From Nitrosarchaeum sp. (GTDB lineage: Archaea; Thermoproteota; Nitrososphaeria; Nitrososphaerales; Nitrosopumilaceae): DNA of 64,000 bases. The position numbers and the translations under genes were made by a program. The stretch is from the NCBI GenBank assembly GCA_021414365.1, contig JAIOOR010000005.1:62001-126000 (forward strand), read 5' to 3'. The notes beneath the pieces were generated by a model. The model ran no database searches and had not been told where the DNA came from. It saw only the letters and a list, made by a program, of their open reading frames with translations. Positions 3,477 through 33,657 of the stretch are shown here, in pieces (the stretch's first letter is position 1; each line of letters opens with the position of its first letter).

Positions 3477-4430
3477 CTATGGATTGATTTTGAAAAATCG
3501 CAGCATCCCATTGTAGAAATTATTGAAAAAAACAAACAAATCAAACTTGTCCTCAAAAGTCGGATTTTCTAAATCAGGTATCTCAAAAGTTTCTAAATCA
3601 GGTATCTCAAAAGTTTCTAAATCAGGTATCTCAAAAGTTTCTAAATCAGGTATCTCAAAAGTTTCTAAATTAGGTATCTCAAAAGTTTCTAAATTAGGTA
3701 TCTCAAAAGTTTCTAAATTAGGTATCACAGAAGTTTCTAAAACAGGGACAGACAAGGATGGAATCGACGAAGTTATGATTGGCAAAGACAATGGTGTAGA
3801 GTAGGATTTTAATTCAAATGAAAACAGTGGAATCTTCCCAGTTCTCTTTTCTGCAAAAACAGATGCTTTTGATGGAAGATATGTATCGTCACGAATCACA
3901 ACTACTCCTGAAATATTATTGCCTGAGAAAACAAGATCGTATGTGGTGTAATCATCAAATGATTCAAAATCACCAACCATAATGTCTGTTTTTCCAAATG
4001 CAGGCAAAGTCGAAGACATTGTATTTCCTATAACAGTGTCAATTGATTGTATGTGCGCGTCATGAGTTAACCAAAATACAGTATTTGACAGACTAGAAGA
4101 CACATACTTGTTTTCAAAAGAATAAATGTTAAACCCGTCATCAATTAAAATGACATCATTCCATGACGTCTCATCATTAATAATTGACACCTGGGCAATC
4201 CATGCGGTTCCAAATGAGACATTGACTTGCTCAATGATATTAATCGTAAGATCGTAGCATTTGGTTTGTGTTTTTGTTGTACGGTCAACTGTGATATAAT
4301 CGCAGACATTATACACAAACACATCGCCTTTTTGAAACTCTCCAAATTCCCATCCAAAAGCAGCTGCATGCATAGACATGATTGCAGATATGCTTACAAA
4401 TGCAATTAAAAATACAAGCAAAATATTCAT
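3477..4430 (-). CDS. Secreted protein with ETFEIP(N/D)L octapeptide repeats
   Basis: The 317-residue protein has an N-terminal signal peptide (hydrophobic residues 2-24, cleavage likely near MHAAAFG). A globular region of about 190 residues follows, then a Pro-rich linker and seven copies of an eight-residue repeat, LETFEIP(N/D), the first diverged to LETSVIPN. The tail is short and aromatic (FDLFVFFNNF). Its ATG overlaps the TGA of the upstream FlaF/FlaG-like gene by four bases, so both are made from one message. The repeats are acidic and evenly spaced, as in stalk or wall-spanning segments. Function is unknown; exposure on the cell surface is inferred from the signal peptide. Confidence 0.75.
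   Translation of the reverse strand: MNILLVFLIAFVSISAIMSMHAAAFGWEFGEFQKGDVFVYNVCDYITVDRTTKTQTKCYDLTINIIEQVNVSFGTAWIAQVSIINDETSWNDVILIDDGFNIYSFENKYVSSSLSNTVFWLTHDAHIQSIDTVIGNTMSSTLPAFGKTDIMVGDFESFDDYTTYDLVFSGNNISGVVVIRDDTYLPSKASVFAEKRTGKIPLFSFELKSYSTPLSLPIITSSIPSLSVPVLETSVIPNLETFEIPNLETFEIPNLETFEIPDLETFEIPDLETFEIPDLETFEIPDLENPTFEDKFDLFVFFNNFYNGMLRFFKINP
3568..3738. repeat. In-frame tandem repeat, 24-bp unit, about seven copies
   Basis: The plus-strand unit is GGTATCTCAAAAGTTTCTAA plus AT(C/T)A. It recurs every 24 bases. Four copies carry AAATCA and the next three AAATTA, and the last is diverged (GGTATCACAGAAG). Because 24 is a multiple of three, copy-number change would lengthen or shorten the protein repeat without a frameshift. 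The near identity at DNA level points to recent expansion by slippage or recombination. Confidence 0.95.
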
Positions 4431-4828
4431 GCTGCGTTGACTTGCAATATGTTCTGGTTTTCTGTAAGAAGATAGAGTTTATCTGTAATAGAATCACATG
4501 TCAGCGAAATCAGCTTTCCAGGCTGCACACTCATATCGGCAGGATCGGCATTATCTGATGTACATGATATGGTGATATTTTCAAAAAACGCCTTTGATAT
4601 GGAGGAATTATATTTTCCATAATTTGAGATAACAATGACTGTTTTTGAATCTACAATGTCTGCAGATATCACAGATATCTTCTCAGAGAGCATTGCAGAT
4701 TTTTGCTGATTTAACTTACCCACCATCTCAGACATTGAAGATATGCTGTCTCCAAAAGAAGCAAGCAGCAAGACAAGAAACACTCCGACCATAGACGATA
4801 TAATCAGGACCTCATGTGTGTATGCCAT
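4427..4828 (-). CDS. FlaF/FlaG-like archaellum or pilus component
   Basis: From the ATG at 4828 the product is 133 residues: MAYTHEVLIISSMVGVFLVL forms a single N-terminal membrane helix, followed by a polar coiled stretch and a beta-rich domain (VIVISNYGKYNSSI, then paired Cys in ISCTSD and SLTCDS). This layout matches FlaF/FlaG-type proteins, which anchor an archaellum or pilus through an outer beta-sandwich. An in-frame ATG at 4885 would add 19 residues, but those codons coincide with a perfect 14-bp hairpin that ends one base before the ATG at 4828, so the shorter start is preferred. The gene overlaps the next secreted protein gene by four bases. Confidence 0.65.
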   Translation of the reverse strand: MAYTHEVLIISSMVGVFLVLLLASFGDSISSMSEMVGKLNQQKSAMLSEKISVISADIVDSKTVIVISNYGKYNSSISKAFFENITISCTSDNADPADMSVQPGKLISLTCDSITDKLYLLTENQNILQVNAA

Positions 4829-4829
4829 C

Positions 4830-4863
4830 GCATCCAAAGGAGTGCAGAGACTCCTCTGGATGC
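4830..4863 (-). promoter_or_regulatory. 14-bp RNA hairpin immediately before the pilus gene start codon
   Basis: On the minus-strand transcript GCATCCAGAGGAGT pairs with ACTCCTTTGGATGC around a six-base loop CTCTGC. All 14 positions pair, one as G-U. The stem ends one base before the ATG at 4828, and an AGGAG sequence lies in its 5' arm. It fills most of the gap between the ParB-like gene (stop at 4891) and the pilus gene. It probably controls translation or RNA processing; the function is inferred. Confidence 0.75.
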
Positions 4864-4890
4864 AAAGTGATCGTTTTGCGGGCATATTAT

Positions 4891-6652: not shown

Positions 6653-7960
6653 TTATTCCAAAAATTCAAAAATTTGAGAATCTTGATGTGTACTTGATTT
6701 CCTCAAATAAATGACAAGCCATACTACAGGCAATATGACAAGTGGAGATAAAAAGATTACTGGAAAATCATCTGATTTTATCCTAGTTTGAGAAACAATG
6801 GATATCGTATCATTTTTCTGTTTTGCAGGTTCAGGTGTTGGTGCAATAATGGAATGGTTTGGCAGAACTGGTTTTTTGCATTTATCTGCGACCCAATCAT
6901 CATATGCAAATTCGCTTTTTGTGCAAAACGATGCAAGAATGTGTGCATTAGATGATTTTATCAATGCGGAATTTAAAACCACATCACCACATGTCACTTT
7001 TGCCACTTGTCGCCCGAAACGATCAGATGGTTGCAAGTCATCTATATCGACAAGTACTGCCAGACCAACAGGACATACAGATGCTGTAAAATCTGTCGCC
7101 CTCTGAAAACCTTCATCGCCTTTTTCAGGGGTATCAACAAGGGACAGTCTCACAATTTTTTTATCAACATGTATTGTGTCACCGTCAACTATTTTGCTTA
7201 CCAACCCTACATAACACAAGCTGCAATCAGAATCGTATTTGCTTGTTGTGTTTTCTGTCAACTCAGATGCAGGCAAATTTACAGTCTGCAAATTAGAAAA
7301 ACGCAAAGGTACATCAGTCACATTAATAGTTCCACCCAACCACGGATGAAACACACATGAAAAAGTAAATTTTCCAGTGTCATTTAAAAACACCACACTG
7401 TTACTATTTGGAGCAATTACATCAGATAGTACGGCGCCTATCTTGAATTGATGCTCTTTGTAATCATAGTTGACAAAGTTAACACCGAATGTTTTTGGCA
7501 CATGTGATGTAGTGGGGGATATGCAGTCATCATTTGACAATATCTTGTTTTGAGATACGGCACAGGACACTGAGGCATTTTTTTTTATTTCTATTTTTAC
7601 AGAGCCGTCATAGTGCAGGAAAAAATAATCCGTAAAGGATTCGGATTTTTTCTTATCATATGATATAATGTTGATGGTGTACAGTCCAAGCTGTGATGAC
7701 TTGTCAAGGTATACAAATCCGTCAATTATGCCGTCATCAGTTGCAACAAGTGATGATTTCTCAGATGTATCATCTGGGTAAATAACAGTCATGTTGACCA
7801 AATGATACGGAACATGACCTGAGATGGAGATGGTGTTTCCAATGCTGGATTTTTCTTCCATGTTTTTTTTTATAATAATATGATATCCATCAGCATATGC
7901 AAAACTCACAGGTATCACCAAGACTGTGATCAAGACTGCAATGAGCATAAAGAGACTCAT
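6653..7960 (-). CDS. Membrane-anchored secreted protein: cupredoxin-like plus thermonuclease domain
   Basis: The 435-residue protein has an N-terminal signal peptide (cleavage near AYADG) and a C-terminal membrane helix (about residues 405-425) followed by basic residues, so most of it faces outward. A cupredoxin-like segment ends with FSCVFHPWLGGTI (C202, H205 as copper ligands). Residues 250-360 are a staphylococcal-nuclease (TNase) domain: VSKIVDGDTI, VRLSLVDTPEK (R271, D276, E279) and DRFGRQ (R317) supply the usual calcium and phosphate ligands. It is coupled to the upstream gene by an ATGA overlap. Outward-facing nuclease activity in a pilus or conjugation operon suggests DNA processing at the cell surface, an inference. 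Confidence 0.75.
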   Translation of the reverse strand: MSLFMLIAVLITVLVIPVSFAYADGYHIIIKKNMEEKSSIGNTISISGHVPYHLVNMTVIYPDDTSEKSSLVATDDGIIDGFVYLDKSSQLGLYTINIISYDKKKSESFTDYFFLHYDGSVKIEIKKNASVSCAVSQNKILSNDDCISPTTSHVPKTFGVNFVNYDYKEHQFKIGAVLSDVIAPNSNSVVFLNDTGKFTFSCVFHPWLGGTINVTDVPLRFSNLQTVNLPASELTENTTSKYDSDCSLCYVGLVSKIVDGDTIHVDKKIVRLSLVDTPEKGDEGFQRATDFTASVCPVGLAVLVDIDDLQPSDRFGRQVAKVTCGDVVLNSALIKSSNAHILASFCTKSEFAYDDWVADKCKKPVLPNHSIIAPTPEPAKQKNDTISIVSQTRIKSDDFPVIFLSPLVILPVVWLVIYLRKSSTHQDSQIFEFLE

Positions 7961-9862: not shown

Positions 9863-10289
9863 AAAAATGTCGGCATGAATGAAAGGACAGTGTTGTAATT
9901 CCAGCCATTAATGATAGTCTGTCCTCCCACATTCTAGTATTTTCTGAAAAGTCATTTACGTCATTGAAGTTATAGTACATGTCAGATTCCGTGATGGAAT
10001 GCTGGCTAGAAATAAAGACGCTCCTCTCTAATCTGACACGTATCAGACTTTGAGAATCATGCGCGCTCTCAGTCTTCCCAGCACTCATACTTTCTCTGCA
10101 TGTGTTACTTGTCCGCAGGTCTTCTAAAAATCCTGCCAGTCTAAAAAAGATACGATGCTGGATGATCGGTTTACCCGTGTCAACAGTACTTTGACTGCAC
10201 CGTATGGAACAATTAGTGAAAATTCTGCAAACTATTTTAAAAACAATACACAACTTGCTGCTTTGTGTAATCTGTGACGCATTCATCAT
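9855..10289 (-). CDS. Hypothetical protein of the mobile element
   Basis: The start chosen is the ATG at 10289, which overlaps the TGA of the preceding gene as ATGA, the coupling used through this operon. The 144-residue product is unusually rich in Ser, Arg, Cys and Ile and has no recognisable domain. Coupling is the main reason to believe it; composition alone would not be convincing. A longer frame back to 10337 would overlap the previous gene more deeply. Confidence 0.4.
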   Translation of the reverse strand: MMNASQITQSSKLCIVFKIVCRIFTNCSIRCSQSTVDTGKPIIQHRIFFRLAGFLEDLRTSNTCRESMSAGKTESAHDSQSLIRVRLERSVFISSQHSITESDMYYNFNDVNDFSENTRMWEDRLSLMAGITTLSFHSCRHFLT

Positions 10290-10666
10290 GATGTCGCCTC
10301 TGGTATGATTGGATGCAGCACACCGTCTGCAAAACATATTTTTCCATCCATGATTGCTCTGGCAAGCACACAGTCTGGCGAAATTCCATCAAAATCACTT
10401 GATGATAAAGAGTCCAGATTGCTTTGATTTTCAAAAGTGATATAGTTGACAAGCGCATCAATGGGACTGATTCTGTATTTTTTGAGAAATTTCCTGCTTT
10501 GTATTTCGAATCTTGCGTTTTCTATCTTCATTTTTTTGTAATTATTAGAATGGGAAATTCCGGTACATACTTTACAATGTATGTAGTCTCTTGCAGGACA
10601 CAGCATAGAGGCTTGCTTGCACATACTGGCGGTGCCGACATGAATGTGTCCTTTGTATGTGTTCAT
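10286..10666 (-). CDS. Hypothetical protein with Cys/His-rich N-terminus
   Basis: This 126-residue protein has Cys and His clustered in its first 45 residues (CKQASMLC, then YIHCKVCTGISH), consistent with a zinc site. A helical stretch and a C-terminal domain follow (DALVNYITFE, then DCVLARAIMDGKI). It overlaps both neighbours by four bases (ATGA at 10663-10666 and at 10286-10289). No family was recognised. It is likely a soluble accessory protein of the element. Confidence 0.55.
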   Translation of the reverse strand: MNTYKGHIHVGTASMCKQASMLCPARDYIHCKVCTGISHSNNYKKMKIENARFEIQSRKFLKKYRISPIDALVNYITFENQSNLDSLSSSDFDGISPDCVLARAIMDGKICFADGVLHPIIPEATS

Positions 10667-11082
10667 CTTTGTACCTCCGTTTTTAAAAACTGTAATTCAT
10701 GCCACACAGGACGTATGATGTCACCATTTACGTGTGTGATTTCATTTGCCTGCAGTATTACAATTCCGTTGATTATTTCCTCAGCAGGTATCTTTTGCAG
10801 TGTTGATAGAAACAATATCTCTTCTAGTGACTGTTTTTGCAAAACAATCTCATCGCATACCGCACTTGACACTGTCTGTTTTCCTTTTATTTCCCACTTT
10901 GCATTATGACATTGAACAATGTTTTCTTTTAGTTTTTCCAGTCTTGCAGAGATTCCACTGTGTGTGATTTCCGCATCTAAGATGCACTTGCTGACATGCT
11001 CTACAAGATCATCTGATGTTGTACTGTAAAGTTTCAAAAAATATATTACGACCCTGTCGATTTTTGATGAAATTGACATCAT
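10663..11082 (-). CDS. Hypothetical helical protein of the mobile element
   Basis: The ATG at 11082 overlaps the stop of the previous gene (ATGA) and gives 139 residues starting MMSISSKIDRVVIYF. The sequence is mostly alpha-helical with short hydrophobic patches and no membrane segment. The first 60 residues could form a helix-turn-helix-like bundle (ISARLEKLKENIVQC). A start eight codons further upstream is possible but lacks the coupling. Function unknown. Confidence 0.5.
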   Translation of the reverse strand: MMSISSKIDRVVIYFLKLYSTTSDDLVEHVSKCILDAEITHSGISARLEKLKENIVQCHNAKWEIKGKQTVSSAVCDEIVLQKQSLEEILFLSTLQKIPAEEIINGIVILQANEITHVNGDIIRPVWHELQFLKTEVQR

Positions 11083-11375
11083 TGTTTTCTCTCCACAAGG
11101 TGCCATCCATGCTTGGATAGTTGTACAATGTTTTTTGTTTTCAAAAATAAAAACGAGTCAAACACAACAGGATATGATATGTTTAGATTGCAAGATATCT
11201 CCGATGGTACAAAGAATGTCTTTTTGTCATTGCGCATGTATATGCGTACTTTGTTTGCAGTTACCTTGATGTTTGTAGAGTTTATCTCACTTGTAATTTT
11301 TGCCAGTTCTCTTCTTTGTTTTCTTGCTTGTGCCAGAATCTTTTCAAATGTAGGCGAGTCGGTGTATCTTTTCAA
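11079..11375 (-). CDS. Small winged-helix-like DNA-binding protein
   Basis: The product is 98 residues. The N-terminal half is a basic helix (FEKILAQARKQRRELAKIT). The C-terminal half, with FVPSEISCNLNISYPVVFDS then LFLKTKNIVQL and GWHLVER, has the helix-turn-helix plus beta-wing pattern common in small archaeal regulators. It overlaps the upstream gene by four bases and the downstream gene likewise. As the third gene from the operon start it is a good candidate for autoregulation of the element. Confidence 0.5.
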   Translation of the reverse strand: MKRYTDSPTFEKILAQARKQRRELAKITSEINSTNIKVTANKVRIYMRNDKKTFFVPSEISCNLNISYPVVFDSFLFLKTKNIVQLSKHGWHLVERKQ

Positions 11376-11593
11376 TTAAATCTCTCCTTGCCAAATAATT
11401 TTGATTTTAAAATTACATCATCTGGAATTTCGTTTAATTCTGGATTGTGATCTTTACATGGATGAATGTCTGATTCAAAATGTTTTTCTGCGTTCATAAA
11501 TGGCTGGGTAATCTCGATTACTACGGTTTTTGAATCGTCATTGAAAATAAAAGACTGTCCTTCAAGCTTTAAAGTTCGAGGGGTAGAAAACAT
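11372..11593 (-). CDS. Hypothetical small protein of the mobile element
   Basis: The ATG at 11593 shares its A with the stop of the first operon gene (TGATG), giving 73 residues. The protein is beta-rich at the start (LKLEGQSFIFNDDSKTVVIE) and polar at the end, with one CxxH-like spot (HPCKDH). No family was recognised. An upstream in-frame start at 11662 lies within the previous gene and would lack coupling. Confidence 0.5.
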   Translation of the reverse strand: MFSTPRTLKLEGQSFIFNDDSKTVVIEITQPFMNAEKHFESDIHPCKDHNPELNEIPDDVILKSKLFGKERFN

Positions 11594-11769
11594 CAGTTTT
11601 CCTCCACTTCCTCTATTTGCTTGATTCGGTTTTTGTTGCTGTAGTGTGGTTTTTTGAAGCACATATCACACACGTTGATTGTCTCGTCTGGATTTGGAGA
11701 ACAGTCATACACGATTTTGAATTTTGGTTTTTCACTACAGCAATTTAGAACAATGTCTAAAAGTTCCAT
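11593..11769 (-). CDS. First gene of the element operon: 58-residue Cys-rich protein
   Basis: The ATG at 11769 is chosen because AGGAGG lies six bases upstream (11776-11781), the strongest ribosome binding site in this region; another in-frame ATG at 11787 has none. The 58-residue product has CC at 10-11, a single Cys near 23, then VCDMCFKKPHY, a plausible zinc knuckle, and an acidic tail. It may be an anti-repressor or small regulator, but nothing identifies it. Its ribosome binding site can be hidden by the leader hairpin. Confidence 0.6.
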   Translation of the reverse strand: MELLDIVLNCCSEKPKFKIVYDCSPNPDETINVCDMCFKKPHYSNKNRIKQIEEVEEN

Positions 11770-11771
11770 GT

Positions 11772-11818
11772 CGTTCCTCCTAGACATTGCTCTGTTGGAG
11801 TAGTGCCTAGAAAGAACG
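11772..11818 (-). promoter_or_regulatory. Leader hairpin that sequesters the AGGAGG ribosome binding site
   Basis: On the minus-strand RNA CGTTCTTTCTAG (11818-11807) pairs with CTAGGAGGAACG (11783-11772). This makes 12 continuous pairs, two of them G-U, across a 23-base loop. The 3' arm contains the whole AGGAGG and ends two bases before the ATG at 11769. Folding would block initiation of the first gene of the operon. Confidence 0.7.
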
Positions 11819-12421
11819 CATCTATAGTTTTCAGCTTGTGATTATCAGTTACGAAAGAATCCAAAAAGGATATTATAGTTTGATATCTATAGCAGTCTTT
11901 CAAGTTCCTTCAACCTCATTTTTTCGCGATTCATACTTGGCAGTTATCCTAGAAAAGTTGTGTTAAATAAAATTACCGCTGTTGTAACTTTTATACTATG
12001 GTGAGCTGTAAATTGACTTGGGACGACAGGAGCAACCTCTTCGATTCATATCTTGGCGGATTGTTTTGAAAAGAACTCTTGTCGTTCCATCAGACAAGAA
12101 ATTTTTTTTCAAAGTATTTAGTAGTTTTCCCGCTAGAAAAATCAATTCCCCGTCGTGATTTGTTATTTTTTGCAAAAATATTTCAAATGTGAAAATTTTC
12201 CCGTCGTAATTTGATAAAAAAGATTTGTCAGGTTCTGATCGCTGTCCTCCCCGGCTTCGTAAACTCTGTCAACTTTTTCTTATGATCAAGAAAGTAATAA
12301 CATTATGCCAAGCTGAATGTAGAAAGCGTTTTATCTCATGAGAGATCTTTTAGAAATTCCCCGTCGTGATCTTGTTTTTTTACAGATAACAGACAAAATG
12401 TTTTATGGTAATTGTCAGCGA
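11819..12421. other. Intergenic control region between integrase and element operon
   Basis: No convincing gene lies in this stretch of about 600 bases. On the minus strand an AACTATAATA box (11871-11880) could be the operon promoter, giving a leader of about 80 bases. A 15-codon frame (MNREKMRLKELERLL) starts near 11933 and could be a leader peptide, but is too short to support. Three copies of a CCCCGTCGTGAT-like motif lie in the half nearer the integrase. The region is rich in A/T runs and is a candidate for the element's origin, partition site or att site. Confidence 0.5.
12145..12370. repeat. Three dispersed copies of ATTCCCCGTCGTGAT
   Basis: Copies are at 12145-12159 (ATTCCCCGTCGTGAT), 12196-12210 (TTTTCCCGTCGTAAT) and 12356-12370 (ATTCCCCGTCGTGAT), all in the same direction and each followed by a T- or A-rich run. 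Two are identical over 15 bases. Direct spaced repeats next to an integrase gene suggest iterons, partition sites for the ParB-like protein, or recombinase arm sites. Confidence 0.8.
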
Positions 12422-13696
12422 TCAGGATTTTTGTTTTTTCTTCATCTCATCTATTTCTTCTCTCAACGATGTAATTGCATTAACTGCAATGTCATTTGTT
12501 CTTTGGAGTTGATCCTGGAGATTTTCAATCTGTCTTTTCAGATTTGATGATTGTCCCTCCTGGTCTAGCTTTAGCTTTAGAATCTCGTCTTCGTTGATTT
12601 TCTCTGAAAATACAGTCACAAAGGGCTCCAGCATGGAATAGTAGATTTCAAGCTCCTCTCTGGATTTTCCCAGATAGACTTTGTTTGAACGATCAGCTTT
12701 TCCCATGAAGATATTTGCCATATCATCACCGATTCTTCCAGCTTGACAGGCATCTTTAAAGACCTTTCTTAGTCTCTTTGGCCTTAATGGGGATTGCTTG
12801 TCTTTTTGAAGAGTAGTTCCAATTCTCTCTGCTGCATGTCTAAAATTAGTTGCAAGTGTCTCAGGCCTTAGAAAAGTTGCAGGAGGAAGCAGATCATAAT
12901 CCATGTTAGTATAATCCCTACGATATTTTCTCTGAAACTGCTTTTTTCTTTCAGTGTTTGATGTTACAAAAATAAGATCATCGTCTTTTCCATCCACTCT
13001 CTCTTTTCGGACATATTCCCTCAGTCTTTTTGTTGCCTCTTTGCTGAAAAATACCTTGACTGCTTCCATAGTTTTTGCCCTAAAATTGCTTAGGAAAATT
13101 CTGTCATGAGATGGGTTTTGTGCTCGTACAAATCCCAAGGTCAGATTTAGCAAATCCCCATCATCCAGACCTGTAGAAATCAGGCATAATGCTATGACCT
13201 CATCCCTTGTAGAGAGTTCCTTTAAGAATATTCTAAGCAATGGTCTGTTAAGATCAAGCTTTTTTGTTTTTGAATCCATTGCAAAGAGAGGTAAATCAGA
13301 GTCAGTCTGCTCTATTGCCTTTGGAATCATTTTTGGGGTATGCCATCCCTGAGTCGTTATCTTGTTGTGTTTGTAGAATCCTCGGATGATTCCATATGAT
13401 CTAATGATTGCTGAGTTGTGATCTATTCCTTGCTTTTTCAGAGATGCAAAAAATTCAGAAAGTTTGATTTCTCCATTTTCATTATCAGTTAATGCTTCCT
13501 CGATTAGCTCATCAGGAGTCAATTGAGTCAGAGACAAGAATCTTGGCATGTTAGATTCAACTGATTTCCAAGTCTTTTCAGGAAATCCTCCGCTTCTAGA
13601 TTTTAGTGTAAGCTGACTCTTCCAACGCTTGATAGTTGCAAAATATCTCCAATCTTGACCATTAAGATAGTCCAAATTAGAATAAATCTGATTCAT
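12422..13696 (-). CDS. Tyrosine recombinase / integrase of thaumarchaeal type
   Basis: The 424-residue protein has an N-terminal helical DNA-binding domain (about 1-140), a catalytic domain (150-360) and a C-terminal coiled coil (365-420). RPKRLRKVF (R310), FMGK and SNKVYLGKSREELEIYY align with box II and the nucleophile region; Y341 is the likely nucleophile. Box I is STGLDDGDLLNL, with Asp where the first catalytic Arg is expected. The HxLR His is K307 and the third-box His is K333. These changes recur, as far as I recall, in thaumarchaeal integrases, so they may be family traits. It probably integrates the element to its left. Confidence 0.8.
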   Translation of the reverse strand: MNQIYSNLDYLNGQDWRYFATIKRWKSQLTLKSRSGGFPEKTWKSVESNMPRFLSLTQLTPDELIEEALTDNENGEIKLSEFFASLKKQGIDHNSAIIRSYGIIRGFYKHNKITTQGWHTPKMIPKAIEQTDSDLPLFAMDSKTKKLDLNRPLLRIFLKELSTRDEVIALCLISTGLDDGDLLNLTLGFVRAQNPSHDRIFLSNFRAKTMEAVKVFFSKEATKRLREYVRKERVDGKDDDLIFVTSNTERKKQFQRKYRRDYTNMDYDLLPPATFLRPETLATNFRHAAERIGTTLQKDKQSPLRPKRLRKVFKDACQAGRIGDDMANIFMGKADRSNKVYLGKSREELEIYYSMLEPFVTVFSEKINEDEILKLKLDQEGQSSNLKRQIENLQDQLQRTNDIAVNAITSLREEIDEMKKKQKS

Positions 13697-13753
13697 GAAG
13701 AAATAATCTAAAAATGATTATTAAACTTCGCCTACACGCTAATCTAAGAATAT

Positions 13754-14131
13754 TTATCTCTGCCTAGATTCTGAGTCGTTAATTTTTTCAGAAATCTTTT
13801 CAAGTGATTGTTTTAATTCCTTAATTGACCATTCTATGTCATCTGTGTCTTTTTTTGAGAGTTCAGTTTTCCATTTCTCCAAAACAACGTTTGCTATCTC
13901 AGAGCAGTAGTAGAGTAAATTCCAGTATGGGTGGTGTTCTGCTGTAGCGTATGCAAGTTCAGTCATATCATTTAATCCGTTTTTAGCTCTAGCCAAAGCT
14001 GTGATGTTCTCTCCAAAAATCTTCACTATGTCAAATTCTGAATCCTTTTCAACTTTTAATCCAGTGTTATTTTTTCCATGTCTATTTACTAATTCAATTA
14101 AATCATTGTAGAAAGCATCAAAGGTAGTCAT
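13754..14131 (-). CDS. Hypothetical helical protein
   Basis: The ATG at 14131 lies just after the stop of the CoA-binding protein gene (14134) and gives 125 residues starting MTTFDAFYNDLIEL. The protein is soluble, acidic and helical, with a C-terminal coiled coil (WSIKELKQSLEKISEKI). An in-frame start at 14167 would overlap the CoA-binding gene by 34 bases. The pair is probably chromosomal and marks the outer side of the integrase. Function unknown. Confidence 0.6.
   Translation of the reverse strand: MTTFDAFYNDLIELVNRHGKNNTGLKVEKDSEFDIVKIFGENITALARAKNGLNDMTELAYATAEHHPYWNLLYYCSEIANVVLEKWKTELSKKDTDDIEWSIKELKQSLEKISEKINDSESRQR

Positions 14132-32077: not shown

Positions 32078-33657
<1,580 letters not shown>

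What the first reader, a model, noticed from the sequence alone, without database searches (positions are those of the whole stretch)
11767..11818. Leader hairpin hides the first ribosome binding site of the element operon
A 12-pair stem (two G-U) locks AGGAGG two bases before the start codon. Thaumarchaeal mRNAs are often leaderless, so an SD-sequestering leader is unusual and could be the on/off switch for the whole operon.
Basis: seen in the sequence. Interest (0 to 1): 0.72.

Follow-up and report, generated by a model that had tools for sequence, protein, structure and literature searches.

The report
Two-way hairpin hiding an archaeal start
In a mobile DNA element of an archaeon, the ribosome-landing site of the first gene of an operon sits on a strand that can pair about equally well with the sequence before it or after it, so it is predicted to be hidden either way; this looks like an RNA gate on the operon, although only sequence evidence supports it so far.

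Summary
The hairpin is real and stronger than described: 15 contiguous pairs (12 Watson-Crick, 3 G-U) at 11818-11772 (-), MFE -25.6 kcal/mol, z -3.8. AGGAGG (11781-11776) lies six bases, not two, before ATG 11769. The stems exclude each other and are nearly equal in energy; two such stems sharing an arm occurred in 0 of 378 shuffled windows. Freeing the SD costs about 14.7 kcal/mol in A:B, 8.5 in B:C and 1.1 with both arms blocked, and this start region is more occluded than all 219 gene starts called in the genome sample. Relatives of the first gene in other genomes look leaderless (27 of 28 without an SD, none with a comparable hairpin). The best promoter match predicts a start near 11845, upstream of arm A. 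Following genes overlap and have SDs, so coupling could pass control down the operon. No orthologous element was found, so covariation is untested, and a DNA operator made of the same three repeats is not excluded. Verdict: probable RNA gate on translation, trigger unknown.

The parts
11804..11818 (-). Arm A, CGTTCTTTCTAGGCA: 5' partner of the SD arm; with weaker inner pairs it continues to 11798
11772..11793 (-). Arm B, AGAGCAATGTCTAGGAGGAACG: carries the SD. 11786-11772 pairs with A; 11793-11777 pairs with C
11747..11763 (-). Arm C, CTTTTAGACATTGTTCT: 17-bp alternative partner of B, codons 3-8 of the first gene
11776..11781 (-). Shine-Dalgarno AGGAGG, six bases before ATG 11769; anti-SD CCTCCT in the 16S gene at 32116-32127 (-)
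11593..11769 (-). First gene of the operon, 58 aa, cysteine-rich; relatives in about 30 genomes of the same order, nearly all in the same family
11867..11880 (-). Best promoter match in the 640-bp gap, AACTATAATATCCT; predicted transcription start about 11845
   Evidence: 99.84th percentile of the minus strand
11372..11593 (-). Second gene, 73 aa; stop and start overlap (TGATG), own SD GGAGG; its start lies in a local hairpin (opening 11.4 kcal/mol), as expected for coupling
11079..11375 (-). Third gene, 98 aa, TTGA overlap, SD GGAGAG
10663..11082 (-). Fourth gene, likely start ATG 11082 (ATGA overlap, SD GGAGAG)
10286..10666 (-). Fifth gene, 126 aa, ATGA overlap, SD GGAGG
12422..13696 (-). 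Tyrosine integrase of the element, upstream of the operon on the same strand; possible source of read-through RNA

Best explanation
It is a translational gate in the leader of an integrated-element operon, built from three arms A-B-C of which B carries the Shine-Dalgarno sequence. Transcription is predicted to start near 11845. Arm A meets B first and closes the leader tightly (OFF). Once codons 3-8 are made, arm C can displace A through unpaired bases in the A:B loop, giving B:C, in which the AUG is in the loop and the SD is held more weakly (leaky). Only when both A and C are kept off B, for example by a bound protein, an antisense RNA or a ribosome, is the SD free. Because the following genes overlap and the second gene's start is also sealed, translation of the first gene would open the next. 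Shown by computation: the sequences, the two exclusive stems, their near-equal energies, the opening costs and the gene overlaps. Inferred: that the RNA is made from upstream of A, that the stems form in the cell, that translation is limited by them, and that something opens them. The opener is unknown; I consider a protein of the element or host more likely than a metabolite.
For: The second stem shares the SD arm. Shared-arm stems of this length occur in 0 of 378 shuffles. B:C alone: -22.4 kcal/mol, z -5.32. A:B is -22.1 (-25.1 with the outer pairs) and B:C -21.6. SD opening cost is 14.7 (A:B), 8.5 (B:C) and 1.1 kcal/mol (both arms blocked). The SD-to-AUG region costs 19.1 kcal/mol to open in a 120-nt context, against a median of 5.2 and a maximum of 18.1 for 219 gene starts of the same genome, and it ranks first of 183 SD-led ORF starts. 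Codon choice in codons 2-13 favours B:C over synonymous alternatives (58 of 2000 as stable). Of 28 relatives of the gene 27 lack an SD, most have a TATA-like box 28-30 bases before the start, and none has a comparable hairpin; the C arm falls in the N-terminal part outside most alignments to them. The promoter match at 11880 puts the start upstream of A. Overlapping SD-led genes follow.
Against: No orthologue of the element was found in the collections searched, so pairing is not tested by covariation. No RNA data. The mismatches between the repeats are all transitions, and beyond the core stem there are A-C as well as G-U mismatches, so the pattern does not exclude a DNA palindrome. The promoter call rests on a matrix from one gene family. 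Amino-acid sequence alone gives much of the B:C pairing (synonymous mean -15.8 kcal/mol). Both states hide the SD, so what turns it on is unexplained.
Confidence: 0.55

Rival explanations
1. DNA operator: A, B and C are three copies (alternating orientation) of a binding site for a repressor of this operon; the RNA hairpins are a by-product.
For: A and the reverse complement of B agree in 16 of 21 bases and B and C in 14 of 17, all differences transitions; two A-C mismatches inside the A/B loop break RNA pairing but continue the DNA palindrome (read). The cluster lies between the predicted promoter and the first codons.
Against: No further place in 364 kb of the genome matches the 17-base consensus fully; the best others have 15 of 17, so a regulon is not seen. 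Arms of 15-17 bases spaced 26-30 bases apart are long for half-sites. The extreme occlusion of the start would still act on any transcript that carries it.
Confidence: 0.22
2. Read-through guard of the phage T4 gene e type: long transcripts from the integrase or host form A:B and are not translated; a promoter just before A (AAACTATAG, 11830) gives a short RNA without arm A that is translated.
For: The integrase lies upstream on the same strand. Read-through RNA is predicted to hide the SD (opening 9.0 kcal/mol). T4 gene e is the documented precedent (PMC3014915).
Against: An RNA starting near 11797 still forms B:C with probability about 0.99. The AAACTATAG box is not among the top promoter matches.
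Confidence: 0.12
3. Structure without a regulatory role: a stable leader that sets constant low expression or protects the 5' end, or a chance product of a local inverted duplication.
For: No trigger identified; no conservation can be shown.
Against: The shared-arm arrangement over an SD and start codon is improbable by chance, and the region is an outlier among gene starts of the genome.
Confidence: 0.11

Closest known systems
SD-sequestering hairpins of phage T4 genes e, soc, 49 and I-TevI (PMC3014915)
   Same: SD and/or AUG in a helix whose 5' arm lies upstream; mobile or viral genes kept silent at translation
   Different: Here the SD arm has a second partner inside the gene, so loss of the 5' arm alone would not free the SD; archaeal host; not tested experimentally
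Archaeal L7Ae mRNA leader (PMC6298567)
   Same: Archaeal leader in which RNA folding hides the ribosome binding site
   Different: The L7Ae leader folds only when the protein binds a k-turn; this leader is predicted to fold by itself, and no Rfam family matches
Translational riboswitches and multi-arm attenuators of the ermC type (own knowledge)
   Same: Mutually exclusive helices deciding SD access
   Different: No conserved aptamer, no Rfam match, no leader peptide in a fitting place shown
Thaumarchaeal integrative-conjugative elements (PMC6563490)
   Same: Integrase, type II/IV secretion ATPase, TFIIB-like zinc-ribbon protein, pilin-like genes
   Different: The terms promoter and leaderless do not occur in that paper; this operon has no relatives in the genomes searched apart from its first gene

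Membership tests
SD-sequestering translational leader (T4 gene e type) | SD and/or start codon inside a stable helix of the mRNA | tested here: met
   (prediction, not probing)
SD-sequestering translational leader (T4 gene e type) | A shorter transcript lacking the 5' arm has a free SD | tested here: not met
   With 5' end 11797, P(B:C) is 0.99 and the SD-start region still costs about 14 kcal/mol to open
SD-sequestering translational leader (T4 gene e type) | Helix lowers translation in the cell | not testable with these tools
   needs a reporter or ribosome profiling
Riboswitch | Conserved ligand-binding domain shared among leaders | tested here: not met
   No Rfam family at a meaningful score in 11300-12450; no homologous leaders found
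Riboswitch | Mutually exclusive structures controlling SD access | tested here: inconclusive
   Two exclusive stems predicted, but both hide the SD, to different degrees
Archaeal L7Ae-type autoregulated leader | k-turn bound by L7Ae | not tested
   No k-turn search was made beyond Rfam
Thaumarchaeal integrative-conjugative element | Tyrosine integrase, secretion ATPase and TFIIB homologue in one insertion | tested here: met
   Integrase, T2SSE ATPase E 4e-27, TFIIB zinc ribbon E 1.6e-5, below Pfam's cut-off
Thaumarchaeal integrative-conjugative element | Both ends and a duplicated attachment site | tested here: inconclusive
   Genus synteny starts at 13741; the left end and a second att copy were not found
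Thaumarchaeal integrative-conjugative element | VirB4/TrbE and VirD4/TraG ATPase pair | not tested
   the left part of the element was not annotated in full

The most novel reading that the evidence does not exclude
A bistable three-arm RNA switch, in which the Shine-Dalgarno strand chooses between an upstream and an in-gene partner, controls a translationally coupled operon of an archaeal conjugative-type element, while related genes in host genomes are leaderless; I know of no such switch described in these archaea.
Probability: 0.4. Interest if true: 0.72.

Novelty: new variant of a known kind. Interest (0 to 1): 0.52.

Why it matters
In these archaea many genes are thought to be leaderless, so an element that adds an SD leader and hides it behind two alternative helices would have a way to control its genes that leaderless genes cannot have. 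It is a small, precise and testable case of translation control in a group where, to my knowledge, few RNA switches are known, and it makes predictions arm by arm.

Tried and rejected
Covariation test: impossible, no orthologous leader. Homologues of the 58-aa gene as substitutes: their starts look leaderless, so they say nothing on pairing (one search used loci that were not reoriented and was redone). Rfam: nothing meaningful. General promoter matrix from all gene starts: degenerate, not used; replaced by one from the leaderless relatives. Attachment site as the role of the palindrome: arms too far apart for a core site, and the 8-base match TGCCTAGA between the conserved sequence at 13741-13769 and arm A is probably chance. 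Intrinsic terminator: no T-run after either stem. Strand asymmetry of mismatches as proof of RNA: not used, because the scan itself admits G-U only. One opening value (C blocked) was computed with inconsistent constraints and is replaced. ICE-like contigs of relatives found through a distant 341-aa match showed no start as occluded. An RNA model and protein structure predictions were not run: one sequence only, and not central.

Full report
What is there. On the minus strand the sequence 11818-11804 (arm A, CGTTCTTTCTAGGCA) pairs with 11786-11772 (TGTCTAGGAGGAACG) in 15 contiguous pairs, three of them G-U; with one bulge the stem grows to 18 pairs and reaches the ATG. The fold of 11850-11760 has an MFE of -25.6 kcal/mol, z -3.84, and none of 200 shuffles reaches it. 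The Shine-Dalgarno AGGAGG is at 11781-11776, six bases before ATG 11769.

The second stem. A scan of all long stems showed that the same SD strand (arm B, 11793-11777) also pairs over 17 bp with 11763-11747 (arm C), which is codons 3-8 of the first gene. Alone this hairpin has -22.4 kcal/mol and z -5.32. A:B and B:C cannot coexist. Their energies are close: -22.1 (or -25.1 with the outer pairs) against -21.6. The balance depends on the ends of the RNA; for a start near 11845, P(A:B) is about one third and P(B:C) two thirds under one set of limits, and for a start of 11848 P(A:B) ranges between 0.32 and 0.59 with the 3' end taken. Shuffled windows contain 0.05 such stems per strand, and in 378 shuffles none had two sharing an arm.

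How hidden the start is. In a 120-nt context the region from -16 to +3 costs 19.1 kcal/mol to open. For 219 genes called in 364 kb of the same genome the median is 5.2 and the largest value 18.1. Among 183 SD-led ORF starts it ranks first. Freeing the SD alone costs 14.7 kcal/mol when only A:B can form, 8.5 when only B:C can form, and 1.1 when both arms are blocked. So A:B is the tighter lock, B:C a weaker one, and removal of one arm does not free the SD. Gene starts for the comparison were called crudely by codon usage, so the numbers are approximate.

Is an SD leader unusual here? Relatives of the 58-aa protein occur in about 30 of 151 related genomes. Read in the right orientation, 27 of 28 have no SD, most have a TATA-like box 28-30 bases before the start codon, their opening costs are 9.8 kcal/mol or less, and their longest stems are at most 11 pairs. 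They look leaderless. The first eight residues of the element's protein, where arm C lies, are outside most of the alignments to them. A matrix made from these promoters gives its best match in the whole gap upstream of the operon at 11880 (AACTATAATATCCT, 99.84th percentile), which predicts a start near 11845, upstream of arm A. This matrix comes from one gene family and is a weak guide.

The operon. The genes overlap by one to four bases: TGATG at 11595-11591, TTGA at 11375-11372, ATGA at 11082-11079 and ATGA at 10666-10663, each with GGAGG or GGAGAG before it. The start of the second gene is itself in a hairpin (opening 11.4 kcal/mol, z -3.43 for the local fold). This is the usual layout of translational coupling, so control of the first start could be passed on. 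That is inference, not shown.

The element. It has a tyrosine integrase, a type II/IV secretion ATPase and a TFIIB-like zinc ribbon, genes of the kind listed for thaumarchaeal integrative-conjugative elements (PMC6563490). Synteny with the genus begins at 13741; the left end was not found.

Mechanism. I commit to an RNA gate on translation with two alternative locks (0.55). The opener is not known. The main rival is a DNA operator (0.22): the three arms are copies of one sequence in alternating orientation, differing only by transitions, and the A/B palindrome continues through its loop with mismatches that do not pair in RNA. No further full match to the repeat exists in 364 kb. The T4 gene e model, in which a shorter transcript lacking the 5' arm is translated (PMC3014915), is weakened because B:C would still hide the SD.

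Verdict. New variant of a known kind, interest 0.52, limited by a single instance and the lack of RNA data.

Noticed in passing
4865-4828 (-): Another long stem with an SD-like AGAGGAG (16 bp, loop 6) near the start of the pilin-like ORF 4427-4885; the possible inner start behind it has an opening cost of 20.9 kcal/mol.
   Followed up: partly
12146-12165, 12197-12216, 12357-12376: Three direct copies of TTYCCCGTCGTRAT between integrase and operon, found nowhere else in 144 kb; possible binding sites.
   Followed up: partly
12019-12089: A 14-bp inverted repeat with GTCGT-type arms; the 662-bp gap 11760-12421 holds six GTCGT/ACGAC, the densest such stretch in the window.
   Followed up: no
11934-11887 (-) and 11821-11807 (-): Small open frames in the leader region: a 15-codon ORF (MNREKMRLKELERLL) and a four-codon ORF (ATG CGT TCT TTC TAG) that lies on arm A; a ribosome on the latter could disturb A:B (sequence).
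   Followed up: no
13741-13769: 29 bases identical in five genus relatives, where synteny begins at the element's right end; it contains TGCCTAGA, also found in arm A on the other strand.
   Followed up: partly
3542-3770: 24-base tandem repeats inside the 317-aa ORF, giving repeated EIPNLETF-type units.
   Followed up: no
6653-7960 (-): Protein with weak cupredoxin-like and staphylococcal-nuclease-like matches.
   Followed up: no
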